Below, one piece after another: positions 34,222 to 46,699 of a stretch of 64,000 nt of DNA. This DNA is from Gammaproteobacteria bacterium (GTDB lineage: Bacteria > Gemmatimonadota > Gemmatimonadetes > Longimicrobiales > Gaopeijiaceae): contig JAPPMM010000017.1 in assembly GCA_028819075.1 (NCBI GenBank), positions 62,001 to 126,000 of the forward strand, read 5' to 3'. How positions within the stretch are numbered: the stretch's first letter is position 1; each line of letters opens with the position of its first letter. The notes below the pieces were generated by a model. That model was not told where the DNA came from. It saw nothing but the letters and a program-made list of their open reading frames with translations, and made no database searches. A program made the translations under genes and the position numbers.

Positions 34222-37200
34222 TCACCTCCGCAGCCGCACCGCCTCCCTGAGCCCGCGCGTCATGCTCACCTCCAGGTCGGCCTCGTCCCTGAGCGCGTCC
34301 GGCAGCGCCCCTTCCCAGTCCCGCAGAATCGCGCGCAGGCGTCCGGTCCCGGGCTCGGTGACGACGGTGATGCGGCGCTCGTCGGTGTGGTCCACGTACG
34401 CCTCGCCTTCAGGCCCCGTCAGGGTGACGCGTTTGAGCGCGTCCTCCCACTCGGCCTCGATCGGCACCGTGAAGAAGAAGTGTCTGCCCCCGTGCTCGTC
34501 CTCCGTGGGCGTGAAGTCCAGCGAGAAGAGCGTCCGACCGTCCAAGCTCATCCCCCGAACGCGGTACGGACCCCGGGCCTCGGGCAGTCTCGCCGCCGCC
34601 TTCATCGACAACACCGGCTCGATCCACAGCTCGCCATCCACGGCCCCGCCCCACAGGACGAGCATGTCGGACCGCGAGGCCGATGCAGCCAGGGCTGTGC
34701 TCGCGGGGCCCGCGGCCAGCTCCGCGCGATGGTCGATCACCTTTTCGAAGTAGAAATCGCTGAGCCAGGGGAACGACCGGCAGTAGCTCATGAGGTCCCG
34801 GCCGCCGTCCGGAGGTACCACCGATCCGCTGCGGAAGTCGTATCCCCACACGCCAACGTTTCCGTCCGGGTAGGGGAACGCCGGATCGGGGCCGAAGGCA
34901 CCCCCGCAGGGCGCGTGCCTGAGCGAGAGGTTGTGTCCTACTTCGTGCGCCAGCGTGAATGGACTCATGATCCCGATGCTCAACCAACCGGGCAGCTGTC
35001 CCCGACCGCGGATGGACCCGAGGTCGGCGGCAACCCCGTAGTAGTGACCCACACCGCCTTCCGATGCTCGCAGCATCGCCAGCTCTCCGAAGAGCGCCGC
35101 CTGCCCCATTACAGTGGTGAGATCCAGAGACGTGACATAGGCGGCGTGCTGCCTGACGCTGAACCCGGCAAACGGGAAAGCGTGCCTCAGCAACGCTACC
35201 TCGGGGCTGTCGGCGGAGATGCGGCGGACCCACTCCACAGCCGACGAATCAGGCTCCGCGGCTTCCACGACCGGCACCAGATTAAGCAGCGTCGGGGGCA
35301 CTTCCACGACGTTCAGCAGCCGGGCACCCGAGGGCGGGAAACGGGTTTCGCTCGCGGCGGTGAGAGGGAGTGTGCCCCCGGGGTCGACCTCCACGACCAT
35401 CTCGACGCCCGGGACGATGACCTCCGCGGGAATGACGGCGTTGTACGACGTGCCCAGATCGCCCTCTTCGGCAACTGCAGGGACCTGGTTGCCGTCGCGC
35501 GTCATGACCACGCGGTGAACTTCGTCCCCTTCCGGTCCCGTAAAGACCGCAACGACCTCGGGCTCGAAGAACCCTCTCGGTTCATCAGCCGTCACGAATG
35601 CCCTCAGCAAGGCGTCCCGGTTGGCGACCAGACGCACGGTCCCCGGCGGAGTCTGGACCGACTGAATGAGGTAGACCGTTGGCAGGGCCACCGTGACCTC
35701 ATCCGGGTTGTCGCAGATCGTGCCCGCCGTCTGCTCGATCGCGGTGTACCATGCCTGAAAGTCCGGCGCGGGGGACGCGCACAGGCCGGTGTCATCGTGT
35801 AGAAGCGTGCGAACCCGTTCCAACTGCCGAAGAGCGAACGGCAGCGCGCCCTCGAGCCTCGGATTCCGGCCCAGCCGCAACTCGGCGAGTTCCCGCAACC
35901 CACCGATGGCGCTCGGAACCGCACCGGACAGGTCGTTTTCGGCCAGGTCGACCGCCGTGAGCTCGGTAAGGTTCGCAATCTCCGCGGGGATGGCACCGGA
36001 CAGGCCGTTGGCGGGCAGCGCCACCTCCACGACGCGTCCCTCCTCGGTGGCCACGCCATGCCAGTCCTCAAGGGGAGCCTCCGTCGCCCATGCCCCGCGG
36101 TTCGTCCAGGACGGGCCGCCGGTCATGTCGTGGAAGCCGATGAGCGCAAGTCGTTCGACCCGCGCGACATCACAACCCGACCTGTCGCCATCCGGTATCG
36201 CGCGCAGCCACGCCTGGAACTCCTCGTCGATCTGGGCGCAGAGATCGGTGCCCGCGTACGACAAACCCCGCATGGACTTCAGCTTGAGCATGCTTCGCGG
36301 GAGCAGGCCAGCAAGGTCATGGTTCCCCTGCAGCCAAAGCCCGTTAAGCGAGCGCATGCCGCCAATGGCGAACGGGAGCTGCCCGCTCAACGCGTTGCCC
36401 TGGAGATCGAGTCGCGCCAGGACCTGGAGGTTGCCCAGACTGCGGGGCAACTCGCCGCTCAACCCGTTGTTTGCCGCATGCAGGTCGTGAAGCGCCGAAA
36501 GGTTGCCGAGTTCCTCGGGCAGAGCTCCGGAGAGCTCGTTTTCATGAATCCAGAGCGTTTCCAGGTTCGACAGATTCCCCAGCGAGGCGGGGATTTCACC
36601 GGTGAGCTGGTTCTCGTAGAGATACAGCCCTTTCAGTGCGGCCAGGTTTCCCAGTTCGGCCGGAATCGCACCCGTGAGGTTGTTCCGCGACGCCGACAGG
36701 ATCTGAATCGCCCACAGGTTCCCCATTTCCGGCGGAATCGGGCCAGTCAATTCGTTACGGCTGACGGTCAGACGCACGAGGCTGCCGAGGTTGCCAAGTT
36801 CCGGCGGCAGGGCACCCGAAAGCTGATTGAACCCCAGGCGCAGCCTTCGAAGAGAACGCAGATTCCCCAACTCACCCGGAATCGAGCCGGAAAGCCGGTT
36901 ATTCGAGAGCAGCAGGGTGTCGAGGCGCGACAGTGCCCCGAGTTCGACCGGAATCGTCCCGTTCAACCTGTTGTGTCTCAGATCGAGCCTGGTGAGCTCG
37001 CTCAACCTCCCCAACTCCGCCGGGATCGGGCCCGTCAACTGGTTGCCGTAAAGAGTCAGCCGTCGCAGGTGCGCCAGGTCCCCGAGCTCGGGTGGGAGGG
37101 TTCCCGAGAGGTTGTTGCCCGACAGCGACAGCGCGGTGACGAAGCCGGCCGAGTTGGTCGATACCCCCCTCCAGTTCCTGATGCTCTCCGGGGTGTGCCA

Positions 37201-37386
37201 GTTCGTCCTGTCGTGCCAGTTCGGCCCCCCGGTCGCGCCGTACAAGCCGATGAGCGTGGCCCGATCGGGGGTATCGGTCTGCTCAACCTCGCGCAGGGCT
37301 GTGATTGCCGGGTCTTCGTCCGAGCAGGCGGAGAGCAGGAGCGTGCAGAAGCCCACTGCCCAGACGCGCGATCCTCGACGAGTCAT
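34222..37386 (-). CDS. LRR-metalloprotease lipoprotein, copy 1
   Basis: A 1,054-residue secreted protein. The signal ends in the lipobox LLSAC, so Cys21 should be lipidated. An LRR N-cap (YGATGGPNWHDRTNW, 49-63) is followed by 12 plant-type leucine-rich repeats of 24 residues (about 80-370, consensus LxxLxLxxNxLxGxIPxELGN). A Cys-bearing cap follows, then a second cap (FHDMTGGPSWTNRGAW) and three more repeats (about 437-515). A beta-rich region (about 530-720) precedes a zinc-protease-like domain with HEVGHNLSLRH (814-824) and a possible Met-turn DLMSYC (Met866), then a beta-rich C-terminus. ACGGAGG sits five bases before the ATG. It starts 16 bases after the end of the paralogue upstream. 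Substrate and partner are unknown. Confidence 0.85.
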   Translation of the reverse strand: MTRRGSRVWAVGFCTLLLSACSDEDPAITALREVEQTDTPDRATLIGLYGATGGPNWHDRTNWHTPESIRNWRGVSTNSAGFVTALSLSGNNLSGTLPPELGDLAHLRRLTLYGNQLTGPIPAELGRLSELTRLDLRHNRLNGTIPVELGALSRLDTLLLSNNRLSGSIPGELGNLRSLRRLRLGFNQLSGALPPELGNLGSLVRLTVSRNELTGPIPPEMGNLWAIQILSASRNNLTGAIPAELGNLAALKGLYLYENQLTGEIPASLGNLSNLETLWIHENELSGALPEELGNLSALHDLHAANNGLSGELPRSLGNLQVLARLDLQGNALSGQLPFAIGGMRSLNGLWLQGNHDLAGLLPRSMLKLKSMRGLSYAGTDLCAQIDEEFQAWLRAIPDGDRSGCDVARVERLALIGFHDMTGGPSWTNRGAWATEAPLEDWHGVATEEGRVVEVALPANGLSGAIPAEIANLTELTAVDLAENDLSGAVPSAIGGLRELAELRLGRNPRLEGALPFALRQLERVRTLLHDDTGLCASPAPDFQAWYTAIEQTAGTICDNPDEVTVALPTVYLIQSVQTPPGTVRLVANRDALLRAFVTADEPRGFFEPEVVAVFTGPEGDEVHRVVMTRDGNQVPAVAEEGDLGTSYNAVIPAEVIVPGVEMVVEVDPGGTLPLTAASETRFPPSGARLLNVVEVPPTLLNLVPVVEAAEPDSSAVEWVRRISADSPEVALLRHAFPFAGFSVRQHAAYVTSLDLTTVMGQAALFGELAMLRASEGGVGHYYGVAADLGSIRGRGQLPGWLSIGIMSPFTLAHEVGHNLSLRHAPCGGAFGPDPAFPYPDGNVGVWGYDFRSGSVVPPDGGRDLMSYCRSFPWLSDFYFEKVIDHRAELAAGPASTALAASASRSDMLVLWGGAVDGELWIEPVLSMKAAARLPEARGPYRVRGMSLDGRTLFSLDFTPTEDEHGGRHFFFTVPIEAEWEDALKRVTLTGPEGEAYVDHTDERRITVVTEPGTGRLRAILRDWEGALPDALRDEADLEVSMTRGLREAVRLRR

Positions 37387-37402
37387 GCCGCCTCCGTGAG
37401 GG

Positions 37403-40400
37403 TCACCTCCGCAGCCGCACCGCTTCCCTGAGCCCGCGCGTCATGCTGACTTCCAGGTCGGCCTTGTCCCTGAGCGCGTCCGGCAGCGCCCCTTCCCAGT
37501 CCCGCAGAATCGCGCGCAGGCGTCCCGTTCCGGGCTCGGAGACCACGGTGATCCGGCGCTCGTCGGCCTGGTCCACGTACGCCTCGCCTTCCGGCCCGGT
37601 CAGGGTGATGCGTTCGAGCGCGTCCTCCCAATCGGCCCCGATCGGCACCGTGAAGAAGAAGTGCCTGCCGCCGTGCCCATCCCCGGTGGGCGTGAAGTCC
37701 AGGGAGAACAGCGTCTCGCCGTCGTCGTCGGTCCCGCGAATGTGGTATGGGCCCCGCGCATCGGGCGGCCTTGCCGCCGCGCGCATCGAGAACGTCGGAT
37801 CGATCCACAGCTCTCCATCCACCATGCCACCCCGGAGCACGAGCATGTCGGAGGCGGGGCCTGCCGCGGCCAGCCCTGCGCTCGCGGTGTCCGCCGCCAG
37901 TCGCCCGCGATGGTCGATCACTTTCTCGAAGTAGTAGTCGCTGAGCCACGGCAACGTGCGGCAGTAGGTCATGATGTCCTGGCCGCGGTCGGGAGGCACC
38001 ATCGATCCGTTGCGGAAGTCGTACCCCCACACGCCGATGCTTCCGTCCGGGTAGGGGAAGTTCGGATCGACGCCGCTGGGATCGCCGCAAGGCGCGTGCC
38101 TGAGCGAGAGATTGTGGCCTACTTCGTGCGCCAGCGTGGTCGATCTCGGCACGCCGACGCTCACCCAGCCGGGGAGCTGCCCCCGACCGGCGATGGATCC
38201 CAGGTTGGCGGTGACCCCGTAGTAGTAGCCCGTGCCGCCTTCCGATGCCCGCAGCGCCTCGAGTTCCCCGAACAGCGACACCTGCCCGGCCGAGGTGGTG
38301 AGATCCAGCGAGGTGTGATAGGCCTCGTGCGGCCTGACGTCGAACTCGGCGAACGGGAACGCGTGTCTCAGCAGTCCCACCTCGGGACTGTCGGCGGAGA
38401 TGCCGCGGACCCACGCCAGAACCGACGTGTCGGGCTCCGCGGCCGCGATGACCGGAACCAGCGTGAGCTGCATCGGAGGCACCTCCACCACGTTCAGCGA
38501 GTCGGATCCCTCGTCCGGGAATCGGGCTTCGCTTTCGGCGGTGAGGGGCAGGGTTTCCTCCGGATCGACCTCGACGACCATCTCGACGCCCGGGATGACT
38601 GCCTCGGCGGGGATCACCGCGTTGTACGAGAGTCCGAGATCGCCCTCGTCCGCTTGCGCCGGGATCTGGTTGGCGTCGCGGGTCATGACCGCGCGGTGGA
38701 CCTCGTCCCCTTGCGGATCCGTGAAGACCGCGACGACCTCGGGCTCGAAGAACCCGCGCGGCTCCTCGGCCGTGACGAACGCCCTCAGAAGCGCGTTGCG
38801 GTCGGCCACCAGACGCACGCTCCCGGACGGGGCCTGCACCGACTGGGTGAGATAGACCATGGGCAGGGATACCGTGACCTGATCCGGATTGTCGCAGACC
38901 GCGCCGGCGGTCTGCTCGATCGCCCCGTACCACGCCTGGAAGTCCGGCGCGGGAGAGGCGCACAGGCCGGTGTCGTCGTGTAGCAGCACGCGAACCCGTT
39001 CCAACCCCCGAAGCGCGAACGGCAGGGCGCCCTCCAGCCCCGGATTCCGGCCCAGGCGCAATTCCGCGAGTTCGTGCAAACCGGCGAAGGAGCCCGGGAA
39101 CGCGCCGAACAGGTCGTTTTCGGCCAGGTCCAACACCCTCAGTTCGCCGAGGTTGGCGATCTCCGCGGGGAGCGGACCGGACAGGGCGTTGGCGGGCAGG
39201 GCAACTTCAACGACACGTCCGTCTTCCGTGGACACGCCATGCCAGTCTCCCAGGGGAGCATCCGTCCCCCATGCCGCCCGGTTCGGCCAGGATGATCCCC
39301 CGGTCACGTCGTGCAGGTCGGTGAGAGCGAGTCGTTCGACCTGCGCGACATCGCAATCCGCCCGGCTGCCGTCCGGTATCTTCCGCAGCCACTCCTGGAA
39401 CTCGTCATCGATCTGGGCGCACAGGTCGGTGTCCCCGTAGGACAGCACCTGCAGGAACTCGAGGCCGATCATGCTCCGCGGCAGCAGACCGGTCAGGCCT
39501 TCGTTTCCTTCGAGCTCGACTCGGGCGAAGGCCCGGGGTCTGCCCAGATTGCGCGGCAGCGCGCCGCTCAACTCGTTGTCCGCGGCTCGCAGATCCTCGA
39601 GCGCCGCGAGGTCGGCAAGCTCCTCGATCAACGGGCCCGTCAGGCCGTTGTCGTGAATCCAGAGCGTCTCCAGTTCCGACAGGTTGCCCAGCGAGACGGG
39701 GATGGGGCCGGTGAGCTGGTTCTGGTAGAGATAGAGTCCTTCCAGGGTGGCCAGATTGCCCAGCTCGGGCGGAATCGTCCCCGTGAGGCTGTTGCGCGAA
39801 ACCGACAGAATCCGGATCGAGCTCAGCTTCGCCAGCTCGGGCGGGATCGTGCCCGTCAACTGGTTACGGCTCAGGCTCATGTAGGTGAGATTCGCCAGGT
39901 TGCCCAGTTCCGGCGGCACGGGACCCGTTAACTGATTCAACGCCAGCAGCAGCCTCCGCAGCGAGGCCAGGTTGCCGAGCTCGACGGGTATGGGGCCGGT
40001 CAGTTCGTTGCGGTGAACCAGTAGGGAATCGAGGCGCGGCAGCGATCCGAGTTCGGAAGGGATCGTCCCGTTCAGGCTGTTGTTGCCCAGATCGAGCATG
40101 GTCAGTTGGCTCAGCCTGCCCAACTCGGCCGGGATCGTGCCCGTCAGTTCGTTGGTGCCCAGAACCAGACGTCTCAGTTGGGGCAGATCTCCGAGTTGCG
40201 GCGGGATCGAACCGGTCAACTCGTTGTCCTCGAGATCCAGTTGTCTCAGTTGGGTCAGATTCCGGAGTTCGGGCGGGAGCGCGCCGGACAGGTTGTTGTC
40301 CCGAAGCAACAGTTCGGTGACGAAGCCGGACGAGTTGGTGGACACCCCCTGCCAGTCCCGGATGCTCCCGGCGGTGGTCCAGTTCCTCTGCCGATGCCAG

Positions 40401-40585
40401 TGCGTCCCGTCCGTCGCGTTGTAGAGGGCCATGAGCGCCGCGCGCTCGGCCGCATAGGGCTCCAGCGGGGGAGGGGCAGGGGGAGGGATGGTCGGCGGGG
40501 CCGTGGTCGCCGGATCGTCCGAGCAGACGGTTACGAGGATCGCGCAAAGGCCCGCTGTCCAGACGCGTGGTCTCCGACGTGGCAT
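37403..40585 (-). CDS. LRR-metalloprotease lipoprotein, copy 2 (upstream paralogue)
   Basis: A 1,060-residue paralogue with the same domain order as copy 1: signal, N-cap (YNATDGTHWHRQRNW), 12 plant-type LRRs, a Cys cap, a second cap plus three LRRs, a beta-rich region, and a protease-like domain with HEVGHNLSLRH (820-830) and DIMTYC (Met872). The lipobox is weaker (LVTVC, Val at -1), so lipidation at Cys21 is less certain. I chose the ATG at 40585, which has ACGGAGG five bases upstream exactly like copy 1; the frame stays open 51 codons further without support. It is first in the operon, divergent from murQ. The last 45 residues differ from copy 1 at only two positions. Confidence 0.85.
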   Translation of the reverse strand: MPRRRPRVWTAGLCAILVTVCSDDPATTAPPTIPPPAPPPLEPYAAERAALMALYNATDGTHWHRQRNWTTAGSIRDWQGVSTNSSGFVTELLLRDNNLSGALPPELRNLTQLRQLDLEDNELTGSIPPQLGDLPQLRRLVLGTNELTGTIPAELGRLSQLTMLDLGNNSLNGTIPSELGSLPRLDSLLVHRNELTGPIPVELGNLASLRRLLLALNQLTGPVPPELGNLANLTYMSLSRNQLTGTIPPELAKLSSIRILSVSRNSLTGTIPPELGNLATLEGLYLYQNQLTGPIPVSLGNLSELETLWIHDNGLTGPLIEELADLAALEDLRAADNELSGALPRNLGRPRAFARVELEGNEGLTGLLPRSMIGLEFLQVLSYGDTDLCAQIDDEFQEWLRKIPDGSRADCDVAQVERLALTDLHDVTGGSSWPNRAAWGTDAPLGDWHGVSTEDGRVVEVALPANALSGPLPAEIANLGELRVLDLAENDLFGAFPGSFAGLHELAELRLGRNPGLEGALPFALRGLERVRVLLHDDTGLCASPAPDFQAWYGAIEQTAGAVCDNPDQVTVSLPMVYLTQSVQAPSGSVRLVADRNALLRAFVTAEEPRGFFEPEVVAVFTDPQGDEVHRAVMTRDANQIPAQADEGDLGLSYNAVIPAEAVIPGVEMVVEVDPEETLPLTAESEARFPDEGSDSLNVVEVPPMQLTLVPVIAAAEPDTSVLAWVRGISADSPEVGLLRHAFPFAEFDVRPHEAYHTSLDLTTSAGQVSLFGELEALRASEGGTGYYYGVTANLGSIAGRGQLPGWVSVGVPRSTTLAHEVGHNLSLRHAPCGDPSGVDPNFPYPDGSIGVWGYDFRNGSMVPPDRGQDIMTYCRTLPWLSDYYFEKVIDHRGRLAADTASAGLAAAGPASDMLVLRGGMVDGELWIDPTFSMRAAARPPDARGPYHIRGTDDDGETLFSLDFTPTGDGHGGRHFFFTVPIGADWEDALERITLTGPEGEAYVDQADERRITVVSEPGTGRLRAILRDWEGALPDALRDKADLEVSMTRGLREAVRLRR

Positions 40586-40804: not shown

Positions 40805-41704
40805 ATGCTCGATGATCGTCTGACCGAACAGCGCAATCCACGCTCGCGTGGCGTCGACCGGCTGTCGCCGGCCGAGATCGTTGCGCTCATCAATGACGAG
40901 GACCGCACCGTGGCCGCGGCCGTCGGGGAGGAGGCTGCCGGCATCGCCCGCGCAATGGAGCTGGCGCGCGACGCGTTCTGCCGCGGCGGCCGGCTGATCT
41001 ACGTGGGCGCGGGCACGTCCGGCCGGCTGGGGGTGCTCGACGCGGCGGAGATGCCCCCGACCTACCGGACCGACCCGTCGATGGTGGTCGGCGTGATCGC
41101 GGGGGGCTACGACGCGCTGGTGCGGGCGCGCGAGGGAGCCGAGGACGACCCGCGCGACGGCGCCCGCGAGATGGACCGCCTCTCGGTGGGCGCCGACGAT
41201 TTCGTGCTCGGCATCGCCACCTCAGGCACCACGCCCTTCGTGCACGGGGCATTGCGGCAAGCCCGTGAGCGGGGCGCCCGCACCGGCTTTCTGCTTTGCA
41301 CGCCTCCGTCCGCCGAGCTCCTCGCCGCCCACGATGTCGTCATCGCCCCCCTGGTCGGTCCCGAGGTGATCACGGGCTCGACGCGCATGAAGGCGGGCAC
41401 GGCTACCAAGCTGGTCCTGAACACCATCACCACCGGCGCCATGGTCCTGATGGGCAAGGTGTACGGCAACCTCATGGTCGATCTGCAGGTCACCTGCCGG
41501 AAGCTCCAGGACCGGGGTGAGCGCATCGTGATGTCGACCCTTGGGCTGGAGCGGGAGCTCGCCCGAGCCCTGCTGCAGGAGGCCGGCGGCCACGTCAAGA
41601 CGGCCATCGTGATGGCTCGCCGCGGGATCGACGCGGAGGCGGCGCGCGTCCTGCTCGAGGAGAGCAGGGGCCGGGTGGCGGATGTCCCCGGTGCCGCCGG
41701 ATGA
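40805..41704 (+). CDS. murQ: N-acetylmuramic acid 6-phosphate etherase
   Basis: A 299-residue SIS-domain enzyme of cell-wall recycling that removes the lactyl ether from N-acetylmuramic acid 6-phosphate to give GlcNAc 6-phosphate. Diagnostic blocks are VDRLSPAEIVALINDEDRTV, LIYVGAGTSGRLGVLDAAEM (the sugar-phosphate loop), GIATSGTTPFVHGAL and GPEVITGSTRMKAGTATKLV. Length is normal. The ATG gives a standard N-terminus (MLDDRLTEQRNP) but has no ribosome-binding site. AGGAG lies about 30 bases upstream, ahead of an in-frame CTG at 40781, a less likely start. anmK follows after 72 bases, and together they feed recovered anhydro-MurNAc into amino-sugar metabolism. Confidence 0.95.
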   Translation: MLDDRLTEQRNPRSRGVDRLSPAEIVALINDEDRTVAAAVGEEAAGIARAMELARDAFCRGGRLIYVGAGTSGRLGVLDAAEMPPTYRTDPSMVVGVIAGGYDALVRAREGAEDDPRDGAREMDRLSVGADDFVLGIATSGTTPFVHGALRQARERGARTGFLLCTPPSAELLAAHDVVIAPLVGPEVITGSTRMKAGTATKLVLNTITTGAMVLMGKVYGNLMVDLQVTCRKLQDRGERIVMSTLGLERELARALLQEAGGHVKTAIVMARRGIDAEAARVLLEESRGRVADVPGAAG

Positions 41705-41776
41705 CCGCGGCGGCATCCCGAAACGGGTGCGGCCGGACGCGCGGCGGACCGCCCTTTTCCACGTGACGCCCGGGCC

Positions 41777-42925
41777 ATGAAGGTTCTCGGAATGATGTCG
41801 GGTACGTCGCTCGACGGTGTCGACGCCGCCCTGCTGGAGGTGGGCGGGACCACCCCGGCAACGTTCTCGTGGCGATTGCTGGGATTCCACAGCGAGAGCT
41901 ACCTGCCGGAGGAGCGGGACTCGATCCGCCGCGCGATCGAGGGGGGCGGGCCGGCCGATCTGGCCCGCCTGCACGCGGTCCTGGGTGAGCGCTTCGCGCG
42001 CTGTGCCCTCGCCGGGTGCGCGCGCGCCGGGGTGGATCCGGGATCGGTCGCGGCGATCGGTTCGCACGGACAGACGGTGTGGCACGATCCACCGTCCGGG
42101 GACGGCCGCGGCGCCACCCTCCAGCTGGGCGATCCCGCGACCATCGCGGAGATCACCGGCATACCGGTGGTGAGCGACTTCCGGACCCGCGACGTGGCGG
42201 CTGGCGGGCACGGCGCGCCCCTCGTTCCCTGGCCGGACCGCCTGCTCTTCTCCGCACCAGACCGGCCGCGTGCCCTCCAGAACCTCGGAGGGATGGCCAA
42301 CGTCACCTGGCTGCCGGCGGCTTCGGAAGGCGAACCCGTCCTGGCCTTCGATACGGGCCCCGGGGTCGCGCTCATCGACACCGCCGCGGAACTCGCCACG
42401 GATGGCCGTCGGACGTTCGACGCCGACGGTGAGCTCGCGGCGGCCGGCGAGGTCGATGAAGGCCTGCTGCAACAGCTTCTGCAGCACCCGTTCCTGCATC
42501 GCCCGCCGCCAAAGTCGACCGGCCGCGAAGTGTTCGGCAGCGCGTTCGTCCAAGGGCTGGTGGAACGCCGGGCGCCGCGTACCAGCCGCGACTGGGCCTG
42601 CCTGGTCGCAACGCTTACGGCCTTCACCGCCGCCTCCGTCGCGGAAGCCTGTCGCTGCTGGGTGCTTCCCCGGGGCGTGAGCGAGGTCCTGCTGGCGGGC
42701 GGCGGCGCGCTGAACCCGGTCCTGGCGGCGATGATCTCCGACCGGCTCGCCCCGGTCCCGGTGCGCGACCTGTCCGTGCTGGGTCTCGACCCGGAAGCGC
42801 GCGAAGCCGCCTGCTTCGCGGTGCTGGCGTGGGCGCACCTGCGGGGTCTGCCGGCCAATTCGCCAGCCTCCACGGGGGCTTCGGGGCGCCGGGTTCTGGG
42901 GTCCCTCACGCCCGGTGGAGCGTGA
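41777..42925 (+). CDS. anmK: Anhydro-N-acetylmuramic acid kinase
   Basis: A 382-residue kinase that opens and phosphorylates 1,6-anhydro-MurNAc to MurNAc 6-phosphate, the substrate of MurQ. The N-terminal ATP-binding block GMMSGTSLDGVDAALLEV (5-22), AIGSHGQTVWHDPP, GDPATIAEITGIPVVSDFRTRDVAAGG, LAFDTGPGVALID and the C-terminal LLAGGGALNPVL are all family signatures. Pairing with murQ is a common operon arrangement. The ATG follows a short gap of 72 bases. An orphan gene on the opposite strand ends 30 bases downstream. Confidence 0.95.
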   Translation: MKVLGMMSGTSLDGVDAALLEVGGTTPATFSWRLLGFHSESYLPEERDSIRRAIEGGGPADLARLHAVLGERFARCALAGCARAGVDPGSVAAIGSHGQTVWHDPPSGDGRGATLQLGDPATIAEITGIPVVSDFRTRDVAAGGHGAPLVPWPDRLLFSAPDRPRALQNLGGMANVTWLPAASEGEPVLAFDTGPGVALIDTAAELATDGRRTFDADGELAAAGEVDEGLLQQLLQHPFLHRPPPKSTGREVFGSAFVQGLVERRAPRTSRDWACLVATLTAFTAASVAEACRCWVLPRGVSEVLLAGGGALNPVLAAMISDRLAPVPVRDLSVLGLDPEAREAACFAVLAWAHLRGLPANSPASTGASGRRVLGSLTPGGA

Positions 42926-43597: not shown

Positions 43598-43603
43598 GAT
43601 TTG

Positions 43604-46600
43604 ATGACAACCCTCGTCTGCTTTGGCCCCGACAACATTGACGGGCGCGGCAGCCCCCTGACAAGGCTGCTGCTCCTGCCGATGCTCCTCGCGGGCGCGC
43701 TCTCGGCCACCGTCCCCGCCTACGGCCAGGTGCCCCCCGACGAGGACTGGCGCACGCTCGACACCGAGCATTTCCGGATCACCTTTCCCGAAGCCCTCCA
43801 TCCCCTGGCGACGCGCCTCGCCGACCGGGCGGAGCGCGCCTACGGGCAACTGGCTTCATCCTTCAGCGCGCCACCGCCGGGCGCCATCGACATCGTGCTC
43901 ACCGACCACGCCGACTACTCCAACGGGTTCGCCAACGTGGTCCCCGGCAACCGCATCACGCTCTTTGCCCGCCCGCCCGCGGACGCGGGATCCCTCAACT
44001 ATTTCGACGAGTGGATCGAGCTGGTGGTCACGCACGAGCTGGTGCACATCTTCCACCTGGATCCCGCGGGCGGTCTGGGCGGCATCCTGCGCGCGGTCCT
44101 GGGCCGCTACCCCGCCACCTGGCCCTTCTTTCCCGGACGCGCCACGCCCACCTGGCTCACCGAAGGGATCGCCACCTACTACGAGTCGACGCTGACGGAC
44201 GCCGGCCGTGTCCACGGCACCTGGCAGGACATGGTGCTGCGCACCGGCGTTCTCGAGGAGGACCTCGAGTCGCTGTCCGTGGTCTCCGGCAGGAGCCCCG
44301 TGTGGCCGGCTGGACTTCGCCCTTACGTCTACGGCTCCGAGTTCTTCCACTATCTGATGGAACGCACCGACACCACGGGCATGCGGCAGCTCGTGGAAGA
44401 GGTGGCGGGCCAGTTGGTTCCCTATCGGATCGACGCCGCGGCGCGTTCGGCCTTCGGCATCTCGTTCTCTCAGGCGTGGGACGAGTGGCGCGCGTCGCTC
44501 TCCTTCAGGTACAGCGGCCTCGCCGGCTCCCTCGCCGCACTGCAGCCGGTCACCACCGGCGAAGCGCTCACCCGCGGGGCGCGCCAGGCCCTCTACCCGC
44601 AGGTGTCTCCGGCCGGCCGGCGCCTCGCCTTCGCGCTCTCGGACGGGCGCTCCGATGCGCATCTGCGCCTGCTCGACCTGGATGGTGGCGCAGGGCGCCG
44701 GTTCACCCGCACCAACGGCCTGTCCAGCTTCTCGTGGACGCCCGACGGCGGGATGGTCTTCGCCCAGTTCGAGCTGGCGGACCGCTACCGCCTCTACAAC
44801 GATCTCTACCGGGTCGATGCGGACGGCCACGTCACCCGCATCACCAGCGGCGGCCGGCTCGCCTTCCCGGACGTGCATCCGGACGGCGAACACGTCGTGG
44901 CGGTGCAGGAGGGAGAGGGCACCAACCGGCTGGTTCTGGTGGACCTGGCCACCGGGGACATCACGGCGTTGACCGAGGCGGCTCCCGCCGTCCACTGGGG
45001 CTTTCCGCGCTGGTCGCCGGACGGGTCCCGGATCGCCGTATCGCAGTGGCGTACCGGCGGCCGCTTCGATGTCGTGATCCTCGATGCCGCCGGCGCGCTG
45101 ATCGCAAGAGTGACCGACGACCGCGCCGTCGACGCGAGTCCTGCCTGGTCCCCCGACGGGCGCACCCTGCTGTGGTCTTCCGACCGCACCGGCATCCCCA
45201 ATCTCTTCGCGGCTTCCATCGACGGGGACGGACGGGCCGGGCCGGTGCGCCAGGTTACCAACATGCTCACCGGGGCCGCCCATCCGGCCATCGATCCGGA
45301 GGGCGAGTGGATCTACTACTCCGCCTACCACCACGACGGCTGGGACATCGAGCGCATCCCCTACGCTCCGGGCGAGTGGTTCGAACCCTTCGCGGACGAC
45401 CCCCGCTTCCTGCTGGGCGCGGATCGTTCCCCGGACCGCTTTCAGGCCGCGATCGAGGCCGAGAGCAGGCCGTACCGGGCCTTCCGCTCGCTCCTCCCGA
45501 CCTACTGGCAGCCGCTCTACTCCGCGCCTCGAAGGATCCGGGAGCGCGATGTCATCGGCCCGGGCTTCGGATTCTCGACCTCCGGCCGGGATCTGGTCGA
45601 CCGGCACGCCTTCCGGGCCTGGGGCCGCCTGATTCCCGAGAAGCGTCGCGGGGAGGGCCGCTTCGGCTACACCGCCCGAGGGTTGGGGAACCCGGTGGTG
45701 ACCTTCTCGCTGGGCCAGCTCTACGATCCCGCGGGTCTCACCCTGGGAGAGCGCCAGAACGGGGACGTGGACACTCTCTACGTGGTGGACCGGGAACGAC
45801 GCGTGCAGGTGAGCCTGGACCTTCAGCGTGCCCGCTTTCGCAACCGCATCGGCCTCACCCTGGAGGCCAGCCACAACTGGGTGTCCTCCGAGCTCCTGGA
45901 CGCGACGCTGGAACCCTCCACCCTCTTCCGGCTCAACCGTCCCACGCGGCGCGTCGGGGAGGTAGCCGCAACGCTGGGGTTCAACACCGCTCGCTCGCAC
46001 GCCATGTCCATGACCCTGGCAGACGGCGTCTCGGGAGCCGTTCGGGGCCGGGTCTCGCGCGTGCTCGATCTCCCCGAGGAACTCGCCGGAGACCGCGCGG
46101 CCGACAGGGGGTTCGAGGAGGTCACCGGCCGCCTTTCGCTCTACCGTGCGCTCGGCAACGTCGGATTCGCCCAGCAGGTGTTCGCCCTGCGGGCGAGCGG
46201 CGGGATCGCGCGCGGACCGGGCGCCGACGGCTTTCACTTCGAGGTGGGCAACGCCGCGGGCACGCGCGAGCGGCTCACCGGCTTCGGTCTCTTCGGGGGC
46301 TCGCCGCTCCTGTTTCCCGTGCGAGGCTATTCCGCCGCTTCCCGGCGCGGGCGCATCGCCTGGTCGGCATCCGCCGAGTACCGGCTTCCGCTCTCCATCA
46401 TTCGCCGGGGCCTCGGGGCCTGGCCCCTGTACTTCGACCGGGCCGGCGCAAGCCTGTTTGCCGACGCAGGCAACGCCTGGGGCCCGGAAGGCGAGCGGGA
46501 TCCCACCGCGAGCCCGAAGCGCGCCGCCCTCGCCTCCTTCGGCCTGGAGGTGACGGTGAACACGCTGCCCTTCTGGACGCTCTCCACCGACGTGCGGGCC

Positions 46601-46699
46601 GGTTTGGCGTTTCCGCTCAGGGGTGTAGACGATCCGCCCGGGGCAGGGTTCCGCCTGCGCGCGGGGCGGCTCTACCTCCGTCTGGGATCGGCGTTCTAG
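43604..46699 (+). CDS. Predicted outer-membrane protein: gluzincin-like domain, beta-propeller and C-terminal barrel
   Basis: A 1,031-residue envelope protein. The N-terminus has a hydrophobic signal (LLLLPMLLAGALSATVPAYG), preceded by an unusually long leader if the ATG at 43604 is correct. A peptidase-MA-like domain follows, with HELVH (144-148) and a likely third ligand Glu187 in WLTEGIATYYES. Next come six WD40/TolB-like propeller blades, such as SPAGRRLAFALSDGRSD, HPDGEHVVAVQEGEG, SPDGSRIAVSQWRTGG and SPDGRTLLWSSDRTGIPNLF (about 315-600). The last 380 residues have alternating strands, ending in an aromatic residue (LRLGSAF), like a surface-antigen/BamA-type barrel. A TTG at 43601 is a possible start. 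It is divergent from the orphan gene by six bases. Function is unknown. Confidence 0.8.
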   Translation: MTTLVCFGPDNIDGRGSPLTRLLLLPMLLAGALSATVPAYGQVPPDEDWRTLDTEHFRITFPEALHPLATRLADRAERAYGQLASSFSAPPPGAIDIVLTDHADYSNGFANVVPGNRITLFARPPADAGSLNYFDEWIELVVTHELVHIFHLDPAGGLGGILRAVLGRYPATWPFFPGRATPTWLTEGIATYYESTLTDAGRVHGTWQDMVLRTGVLEEDLESLSVVSGRSPVWPAGLRPYVYGSEFFHYLMERTDTTGMRQLVEEVAGQLVPYRIDAAARSAFGISFSQAWDEWRASLSFRYSGLAGSLAALQPVTTGEALTRGARQALYPQVSPAGRRLAFALSDGRSDAHLRLLDLDGGAGRRFTRTNGLSSFSWTPDGGMVFAQFELADRYRLYNDLYRVDADGHVTRITSGGRLAFPDVHPDGEHVVAVQEGEGTNRLVLVDLATGDITALTEAAPAVHWGFPRWSPDGSRIAVSQWRTGGRFDVVILDAAGALIARVTDDRAVDASPAWSPDGRTLLWSSDRTGIPNLFAASIDGDGRAGPVRQVTNMLTGAAHPAIDPEGEWIYYSAYHHDGWDIERIPYAPGEWFEPFADDPRFLLGADRSPDRFQAAIEAESRPYRAFRSLLPTYWQPLYSAPRRIRERDVIGPGFGFSTSGRDLVDRHAFRAWGRLIPEKRRGEGRFGYTARGLGNPVVTFSLGQLYDPAGLTLGERQNGDVDTLYVVDRERRVQVSLDLQRARFRNRIGLTLEASHNWVSSELLDATLEPSTLFRLNRPTRRVGEVAATLGFNTARSHAMSMTLADGVSGAVRGRVSRVLDLPEELAGDRAADRGFEEVTGRLSLYRALGNVGFAQQVFALRASGGIARGPGADGFHFEVGNAAGTRERLTGFGLFGGSPLLFPVRGYSAASRRGRIAWSASAEYRLPLSIIRRGLGAWPLYFDRAGASLFADAGNAWGPEGERDPTASPKRAALASFGLEVTVNTLPFWTLSTDVRAGLAFPLRGVDDPPGAGFRLRAGRLYLRLGSAF

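What the first reader, a model, noticed from the sequence alone, without database searches (positions are those of the whole stretch)
34222..40585. Tandem LRR-zinc-protease lipoproteins as a candidate uncharacterised secreted system
Two adjacent genes encode about 1,055-residue lipoprotein-type proteins. Each joins about 15 plant-type leucine-rich repeats in two blocks, a beta-rich linker and a metzincin-like protease domain with a possible Met-turn. LRR recognition fused to an exported protease suggests targeted cleavage of a specific surface or extracellular protein, perhaps from competitors, hosts or the producer's own envelope. Sequence shows the architecture; substrate and targeting role are inference.
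Basis: partly seen in the sequence, partly recalled or inferred. Interest (0 to 1): 0.78.

Follow-up and report, generated by a model that had tools for sequence, protein, structure and literature searches.

The report
LRR-guided StcE-like proteases of sponge symbionts
The two neighbouring genes encode exported zinc proteases, related in fold to the mucin-cutting enzyme StcE and fused to plant-type leucine-rich repeats; they belong to an apparently undescribed family present in up to about 40 copies per genome in sponge- and coral-associated bacteria, probably used to cut particular extracellular proteins of the animal host.

Summary
P0001 (34222-37386, -) and P0002 (37403-40585, -) are tandem 1,054/1,060-aa proteins: export signal, about 12+3 plant-type LRRs in two Cys-capped blocks, and a C-terminal ~490-aa module with HEVGHNLSLRH and a D-[LI]-M-[ST]-Y-C Met-turn. 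AlphaFold (pLDDT 92) gives a metzincin whose best PDB match by a wide margin is StcE (M66 glycoprotease); Pfam M66 matches all 73 relatives tested. The pair belongs to a large paralogous family: 19 intact modules in 18 genes here, up to 43 matches per genome in relatives. The closest 79 loci, in about 46 MAGs, nearly all bear names of sponge or coral data sets and span Gemmatimonadota, Acidobacteriota, Latescibacterota and Rhodothermales. LRR-free, low-copy homologues occur in other families of the phylum. Zinc ligands and Met are invariant and dN/dS is 0.14-0.50, so they are selected as enzymes. Most likely: surface lipoproteins whose LRRs direct an StcE-like protease to specific host extracellular (perhaps O-glycosylated) proteins. 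Folds are supported by models; activity, substrate, surface display and host targeting are inference. New variant of a known kind.

The parts
37403..40585 (-). P0002: 1,060-aa exported LRR + M66-like metzincin protein (first gene of the tandem pair, next to divergent murQ-anmK)
34222..37386 (-). P0001: 1,054-aa paralogue, 16 bp downstream of P0002; 77% identical to it in the protease module, 65% in LRR block 1
37324..37386 (-). P0001 signal peptide with canonical lipobox LSA|C21
   Evidence: sequence
40523..40585 (-). P0002 signal peptide; lipobox-like VTV|C21 with atypical Val at -1, Cys kept in orthologues
36172..37269 (-). P0001 N-cap and LRR block 1 (about 12 plant-type 24-residue repeats), closed by Cys383/Cys405
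35707..36171 (-). P0001 LRR block 2 (3-4 repeats), closed by Cys536/Cys558
39353..40447 (-). P0002 N-cap and LRR block 1, closed by Cys389/Cys411
38885..39352 (-). P0002 LRR block 2, closed by Cys542/Cys564
   Evidence: alignment A3
35314..35703 (-).
   Evidence: StcE alignment
34696..35310 (-). P0001 metzincin catalytic domain
34915..34947 (-). P0001 zinc site HEVGHNLSLRH (residues 814-824)
34780..34797 (-). P0001 Met-turn DLMSYC (residues 864-869); Cys869 probably pairs with Cys827
   Evidence: disulphide inferred
34225..34671 (-). P0001 C-terminal beta domain of the module
38495..38884 (-). P0002 Ig-like domain of the protease module
37877..38491 (-). P0002 metzincin catalytic domain (zinc site 38096-38128, Met-turn 37961-37978)
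37406..37852 (-). P0002 C-terminal beta domain
40805..42925 (+). murQ-like and anmK-like neighbours (named from their sequence by eye); adjacent to the P0002 orthologue in eight genus loci, used as synteny anchor, not part of the protease

Best explanation
These are exported, probably outer-membrane-anchored zinc metalloproteases. The C-terminal module is a compact StcE (M66)-like enzyme: an Ig-like domain that may hold the (glyco)protein substrate, a metzincin catalytic domain using His814/His818/His824, Glu815 and the Met866 turn, and a C-terminal beta domain. The N-terminal plant-type LRR solenoid is a replaceable address that binds one particular partner and brings the protease to it. A symbiont of this clade carries about 10-40 such enzymes with different LRR arms and uses them to trim particular host extracellular proteins (mesohyl matrix, mucin-like or immune-surface glycoproteins) for attachment, nutrition or tolerance. 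Shown by computation: architecture, folds, intact active site, purifying selection, expansion, occurrence in sponge/coral data sets. Inferred: surface exposure, proteolytic activity, glycoprotein preference, LRR as targeting arm, host proteins as substrates.
For: Module model pLDDT 91.8, pTM 0.91. Foldseek best hit StcE 3ujz E 3.7e-13, next hit 2.3e-5; VIA-align StcE Z 13.7 over 343 residues spanning model 5-453, others at most 9.9 and mostly over the catalytic domain. Pfam M66 matches 73 of 73 members, best 8.4e-11. H/E/H/H/Met invariant in 73 sequences. dN/dS 0.14-0.50 between orthologues and near paralogues. LRR-fold match to plant ligand-binding ectodomains. Modularity: the same protease occurs with plant-type LRRs, BspA/animal-type LRRs, Big_2 domains, two units in one protein, or without LRRs. 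Copy number 21 matches here, 4-31 in the genus, 5-43 in related genera, against 1-4 of an LRR-free form in other families. The 79 nearest loci carry isolate names that fit sponge or coral data sets (hosts of RHO/IRC/CAR/APA as in PMC8163846; jk18x assigned to PMC9531527 from my own knowledge). StcE, TagA and CpaA are metzincin O-glycoproteases (PMC7542363).
Against: No activity data. The Gly of HExxHxxGxxH is Ser in both window proteins (Gly in other paralogues). Sequence similarity to M66 is weak and confined to the active-site stretch; full-length P0001 scores 19.5 against a cut-off of 20.6. LRR-protease orientation is unresolved (pTM 0.58). The LRR concave face is not hypervariable among orthologues, so there is no sign of an arms race. 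No T2SS secretin above cut-off in the genome, so how they reach the cell surface is unknown; a periplasmic location is not excluded. The host source of several data sets is read from isolate names, not from metadata.
Confidence: 0.55

Rival explanations
1. Same enzyme type, but aimed at other microbes: LRR arms recognise surface proteins of competing or prey bacteria, or phage, in the dense sponge community.
For: Large repertoire of different N-terminal arms in one genome; family found across several phyla that share one habitat.
Against: No immunity or toxin-delivery gene was recognised beside the pair (neighbours look like murQ, anmK, a permease and a phosphoesterase); the StcE/CpaA fold class is known for animal glycoproteins.
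Confidence: 0.15
2. General nutrient-scavenging surface proteases: LRRs only adhere to matrix or cell envelope, with little specificity; the expansion reflects a protein-rich diet.
For: Other families of the phylum hold an LRR-free form of the protease at 1-4 copies, so the basic job may be nutritional.
Against: Orthologues keep their own LRR arm at 85-92% identity while paralogues differ, which suggests that each arm has a defined ligand.
Confidence: 0.15
3. Maturation or turnover proteases of the producer's own envelope (periplasmic or surface).
For: Lipoprotein-type anchoring; conserved position beside the apparent cell-wall recycling genes murQ-anmK in the genus.
Against: About 20 paralogues scattered over many contigs; no match in many relatives of the same family; copy number concentrated in lineages from host-associated data sets.
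Confidence: 0.1
4. Adhesins: the metzincin fold is a binding scaffold without catalysis (pseudoenzyme).
For: Gly-to-Ser/Asn/Asp change in the zinc motif of most members.
Against: Three His, Glu and Met-turn Met are invariant in 73 divergent sequences.
Confidence: 0.05

Closest known systems
StcE / TagA (MEROPS M66, secreted mucin-type O-glycoproteases)
   Same: Metzincin with beta domains before and after it; best fold match, Z 13.7; Pfam M66 hit in all members.
   Different: About 14-15% identity; lipoprotein-type export instead of T2SS (no T2SS secretin above cut-off here); LRR fusion; large paralogous family; Gly of the zinc motif often Ser/Asn/Asp; activity untested.
CpaA of Acinetobacter (M72 metzincin glycoprotease)
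   Same: Ig-like domains plus metzincin; fold match Z 8.4.
   Different: Four tandem Ig-like repeats, T2SS export with chaperone CpaB, no LRRs (PMC7542363).
M60-like/PF13402 mucinases of host-associated microbes (BT4244)
   Same: Works-like analogue: surface lipoprotein metallopeptidases joined to binding modules in animal-associated microbes (PMC3267712).
   Different: Gluzincin, not metzincin; carbohydrate-binding modules instead of LRRs; described from vertebrate mucosa and invertebrate gut.
LRR 'eukaryote-like repeat proteins' of sponge symbionts
   Same: LRR proteins are enriched in sponge MAGs (PMC8163846).
   Different: The text of that paper contains neither 'protease' nor 'peptidase'; here many LRRs are the N-terminal arm of a zinc protease.
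Plant LRR receptor kinases (FLS2, MIK2, ERL)
   Same: Same LRR class, 24-residue LxxLxLxxNxLxGxIP repeats; top fold hits.
   Different: No transmembrane or kinase domain; bacterial; the output domain is a protease.

Membership tests
Peptidase M66 (StcE-like) | Zinc motif HExxHxxGxxH | tested here: inconclusive
   All three His and Glu invariant in 73 sequences; Gly is Ser in the window proteins, Gly in some own-genome paralogues and in most LRR-free homologues.
Peptidase M66 (StcE-like) | Pfam PF10462 score over the gathering cut-off | tested here: met
   P0002 23.4 bits and isolated P0001 module 21.0 against 20.6; full-length P0001 19.5, just below. 73 of 73 relatives match at E <= 0.01.
Peptidase M66 (StcE-like) | StcE fold over more than the catalytic domain | tested here: met
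   Foldseek E 3.7e-13; Z 13.7, 343 residues, model 5-453; rmsd 6.7 shows domain shifts.
Peptidase M66 (StcE-like) | Cleavage of O-glycosylated proteins | not testable with these tools
   No assay.
Metzincins, clan MA(M) | Met-turn below the zinc site | tested here: met
   D-x-M-x-Y-C, Met invariant in 73 sequences; metzincin fold hits include ADAM, adamalysin, archaemetzincin and fragilysin.
M12B adamalysin/reprolysin | Pfam Reprolysin score over cut-off | tested here: not met
   Reprolysin_3 16.3 and 21.7 bits against 22.4 for the window proteins.
M72 (CpaA) | Fold match over catalytic and Ig-like domains | tested here: inconclusive
   Z 8.4 over 168 residues, model 91-337.
Plant-type LRR proteins | 24-residue repeats with xLxGxIP consensus forming a solenoid | tested here: met
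Bacterial lipoproteins | Lipobox [LVI][ASTVI][GAS]C at the end of the signal peptide | tested here: inconclusive
   P0001 LSAC meets it; P0002 VTVC has Val at -1.
T2SS-secreted proteases | Type II secretion system in the genome | tested here: inconclusive
   gspD model TIGR02517: one match below cut-off, 173 of 351 bits, in a 97.6% complete genome.

The most novel reading that the evidence does not exclude
An addressable protease repertoire: animal symbionts of several phyla share and amplify one StcE-like protease module and vary the LRR arm in front of it, so that each of 10-40 enzymes per cell cuts a different sponge or coral extracellular glycoprotein; this would give a concrete biochemical role for much of the unexplained LRR abundance in sponge symbionts.
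Probability: 0.3. Interest if true: 0.78.

Novelty: new variant of a known kind. Interest (0 to 1): 0.6.

Why it matters
LRR and other eukaryote-like repeat proteins are among the strongest genomic marks of sponge symbionts, but what most of them do is unknown. Here many LRRs are joined to an intact, strictly conserved StcE-like zinc protease, in a family amplified up to about 40-fold and found in several unrelated symbiont phyla. That turns a vague class ('LRR eukaryote-like proteins') into testable enzymes with predictable active-site mutants and candidate substrates, and offers a large untapped set of StcE-like proteases with natural targeting domains.

Tried and rejected
M12B/adamalysin membership: below Pfam cut-off. 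Type III effector or internalin identity suggested by NCBIfam hits XopAE, XopAC, internalin: scores far under their cut-offs and LRR only. Fast-evolving LRR recognition face (arms race): not seen; concave-face entropy is not above other exposed LRR positions in P0002 orthologues, and only slightly above in the P0001 set, which mixes paralogues; dN/dS < 1 everywhere. T2SS route as for StcE: no secretin over cut-off. The label 'Gammaproteobacteria' for the nearest record: rejected, because by matching hit coordinates L051's genome (G302) equals G009, the same species as the window; L056's genome (G303, BD2-11 clade) equals G001, same genus; L066's (G305, Palauibacter, Gemmatimonadota) equals G052, same class. 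Clean single origin per phylum in the protease tree: Acidobacteriota are scattered among Gemmatimonadota (6 changes for 6 rows); Latescibacterota need one change; transfer is likely, but misbinning and paralogy also contribute. Promoter/terminator scan of the pair: nothing above chance. Literature searches for an LRR-M66 or sponge-M66 family found none, in an open-access library only.
Full report
OBSERVATION. Two minus-strand ORFs lie exactly where stated: P0002 (37403-40585, 1,060 aa) and P0001 (34222-37386, 1,054 aa), 16 bp apart. Each starts with a signal peptide; P0001 has the lipobox LSA|C21, P0002 the atypical VTV|C21 whose Cys is kept in orthologues. Each has exactly eight Cys: two in the signal region, two pairs closing the two LRR blocks, and one pair (827/869 in P0001) beside the zinc helix and in the Met-turn, nearly invariant in the family. 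Pfam finds LRR_1 at 1e-36 and 1e-32. In the full-length model the LRR part is mostly at pLDDT above 90 with about 12 + 3-4 repeats; the relative orientation of LRR and protease is not resolved, pTM 0.58. Foldseek's best matches are plant LRR receptor ectodomains, so the 'plant-type' call is right.

PROTEASE MODULE. With 73 sequences the module (P0001 562-1054) folds at pLDDT 91.8 and pTM 0.91. StcE (3ujz) is the best PDB match by about eight orders of magnitude in E (3.7e-13; next 2.3e-5). VIA-align gives StcE Z 13.7 over 343 residues across the module, against at most 9.9 for ADAM and snake-venom enzymes, mostly over the catalytic domain. Pfam M66 is the most frequent family and matches 73 of 73 members; NCBIfam has no model for it. 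His814, Glu815, His818, His824 and Met866 are invariant in all 73 (numbering). The glycine of HExxHxxGxxH is Ser in the window proteins, Gly/Ser/Asn/Asp in paralogues, and mostly Gly in LRR-free homologues.

FAMILY. The window lies in a 4.4-Mb, 97.6%-complete genome in which the module profile matches 21 times; I count 19 intact modules in 18 genes, one gene carrying two LRR-protease units (L046). All 10 other genomes of the genus have it, 4-31 matches; related genera of the family and Palauibacter 5-43. Several copies sit at contig ends, so counts are probably lower bounds. In a sample of 298 genomes of the phylum 137 have at least one match (at most five candidates were scored per genome there). 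In 20 relatives outside the amplified genera there were 1-4 copies, and the loci read are without LRRs (none or one chance regex hit each), many with Ig-like or fibronectin-type N-termini and the classic HExGHxxGRxH. In a quick tree 18 of these LRR-free sequences separate from the rest with 100% SH-aLRT; three further LRR-free single-copy sequences (L130-L132) fall inside the amplified side. The simplest history is a low-copy, LRR-free lipoprotein protease that was amplified and joined to LRRs in particular lineages; the root is not established, so the direction is inference.

WHERE IT OCCURS. RHO, IRC, CAR and APA fit the hosts of PMC8163846; the assignment of jk18x to the Ircinia study PMC9531527, and of SB06xx, bin43/bin94 and the OX/CAT assemblies to sponge projects, rests on my own knowledge; PL23a is unsure. 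Labelled phyla: Gemmatimonadota, Acidobacteriota (including L096 and L103 on 94-171 kb contigs), Latescibacterota (one on a 2.5-Mb contig), Rhodothermales and one other Bacteroidota. Acidobacteriota are scattered among Gemmatimonadota in the tree, which suggests transfer between symbionts; misbinning cannot be excluded for short contigs. The nearest record's 'Gammaproteobacteria' label is very probably a submitter error: by matching hit lists it is the same species as the window, and the window shares genus with the BD2-11 clade bin43 and class with Palauibacter.

SELECTION. P0002 orthologues, next to murQ-anmK in eight genus loci, are 82-92% identical in LRR and protease alike with dN/dS 0.14-0.34; the P0001 set is 0.15-0.50. 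Between the two window paralogues LRR block 1 has diverged more (65% identity) than the protease (77%). The LRR concave face is not hypervariable among orthologues. So each arm is conserved within an orthologue group and differs between paralogues: consistent with one stable ligand per enzyme, not with an arms race.

MECHANISM. The best reading is a surface-anchored StcE-like zinc protease with an LRR address. That it is a metzincin is strongly supported by fold and active site; that it is an active protease is very likely from invariance; that the LRRs choose the target follows from general knowledge of LRRs and from modularity (the same protease with plant-type LRRs, with BspA-type LRRs in L042, with Big_2 domains, or with none; and the same LRR/Big_2 front joined to a leishmanolysin-like protease in L175); that targets are sponge extracellular glycoproteins is inference from habitat and from the behaviour of StcE, TagA and CpaA (PMC7542363). 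How the proteins cross the outer membrane is unknown; a T2SS secretin was not found above cut-off.

KNOWN OR NEW. The parts are known: M66/StcE, plant-type LRRs, LRR enrichment in sponge symbionts (PMC8163846). By function the nearest analogue is the M60-like mucinase family, with carbohydrate-binding modules as address (PMC3267712). I found no report of the LRR-M66 fusion or of its amplification, within an open-access library only. I file it as M66-like, a new variant, and not as a proven M66 enzyme, because the Gly of the motif is replaced and activity is untested.

Noticed in passing
L049:3703-6249 (-) and L175:2564-5572 (+), same genome (C45, C12): LRR lipoproteins with Big_9 or Big_2 domains fused to a different HExxH protease, leishmanolysin-like (Pfam M8 E 0.009 in L175, below cut-off; L049 by eye): apparently a second LRR-metalloprotease family using the same front modules.
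   Followed up: partly
L177:2255-2920 (+), G000 contig C51: A 222-aa exported protein that is only the C-terminal beta domain of the M66-like module; similar stand-alone matches (profile about 330-477) occur in G302, G304, G305 and G310, so the domain also exists without the protease.
   Followed up: partly
L046:397-6390 (-): One 1,998-aa ORF carrying two complete LRR + protease units in tandem.
   Followed up: no
L042:4329-7958 (+), G000 contig C24: The same protease module behind BspA/animal-type LRRs and a Big_2 domain instead of plant-type LRRs.
   Followed up: no
L051, L053, L054, L056 (records JAPPJO, VXNP, VYDD, MPMR): MAGs labelled Gammaproteobacteria or ranked under Pseudomonadota at NCBI whose genes group with the window; at least RHO2_bin_50 and bin43 belong to the window's own species and genus in Gemmatimonadota.
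   Followed up: partly
window 34222-40585: NCBIfam's fibronectin-binding LIC_11051 model gives sub-cut-off hits to the LRR part; the 'fibronectin-binding protein' enrichment reported for sponge Gemmatimonadota (PMC8163846) could partly be such LRR matches.
   Followed up: no
window 43601-46699 (+): 1,032-aa ORF near the pair with an HELVH metallopeptidase-like N-terminal part, TolB-like repeats and an outer-membrane-like C-terminus (by eye); not examined.
   Followed up: no
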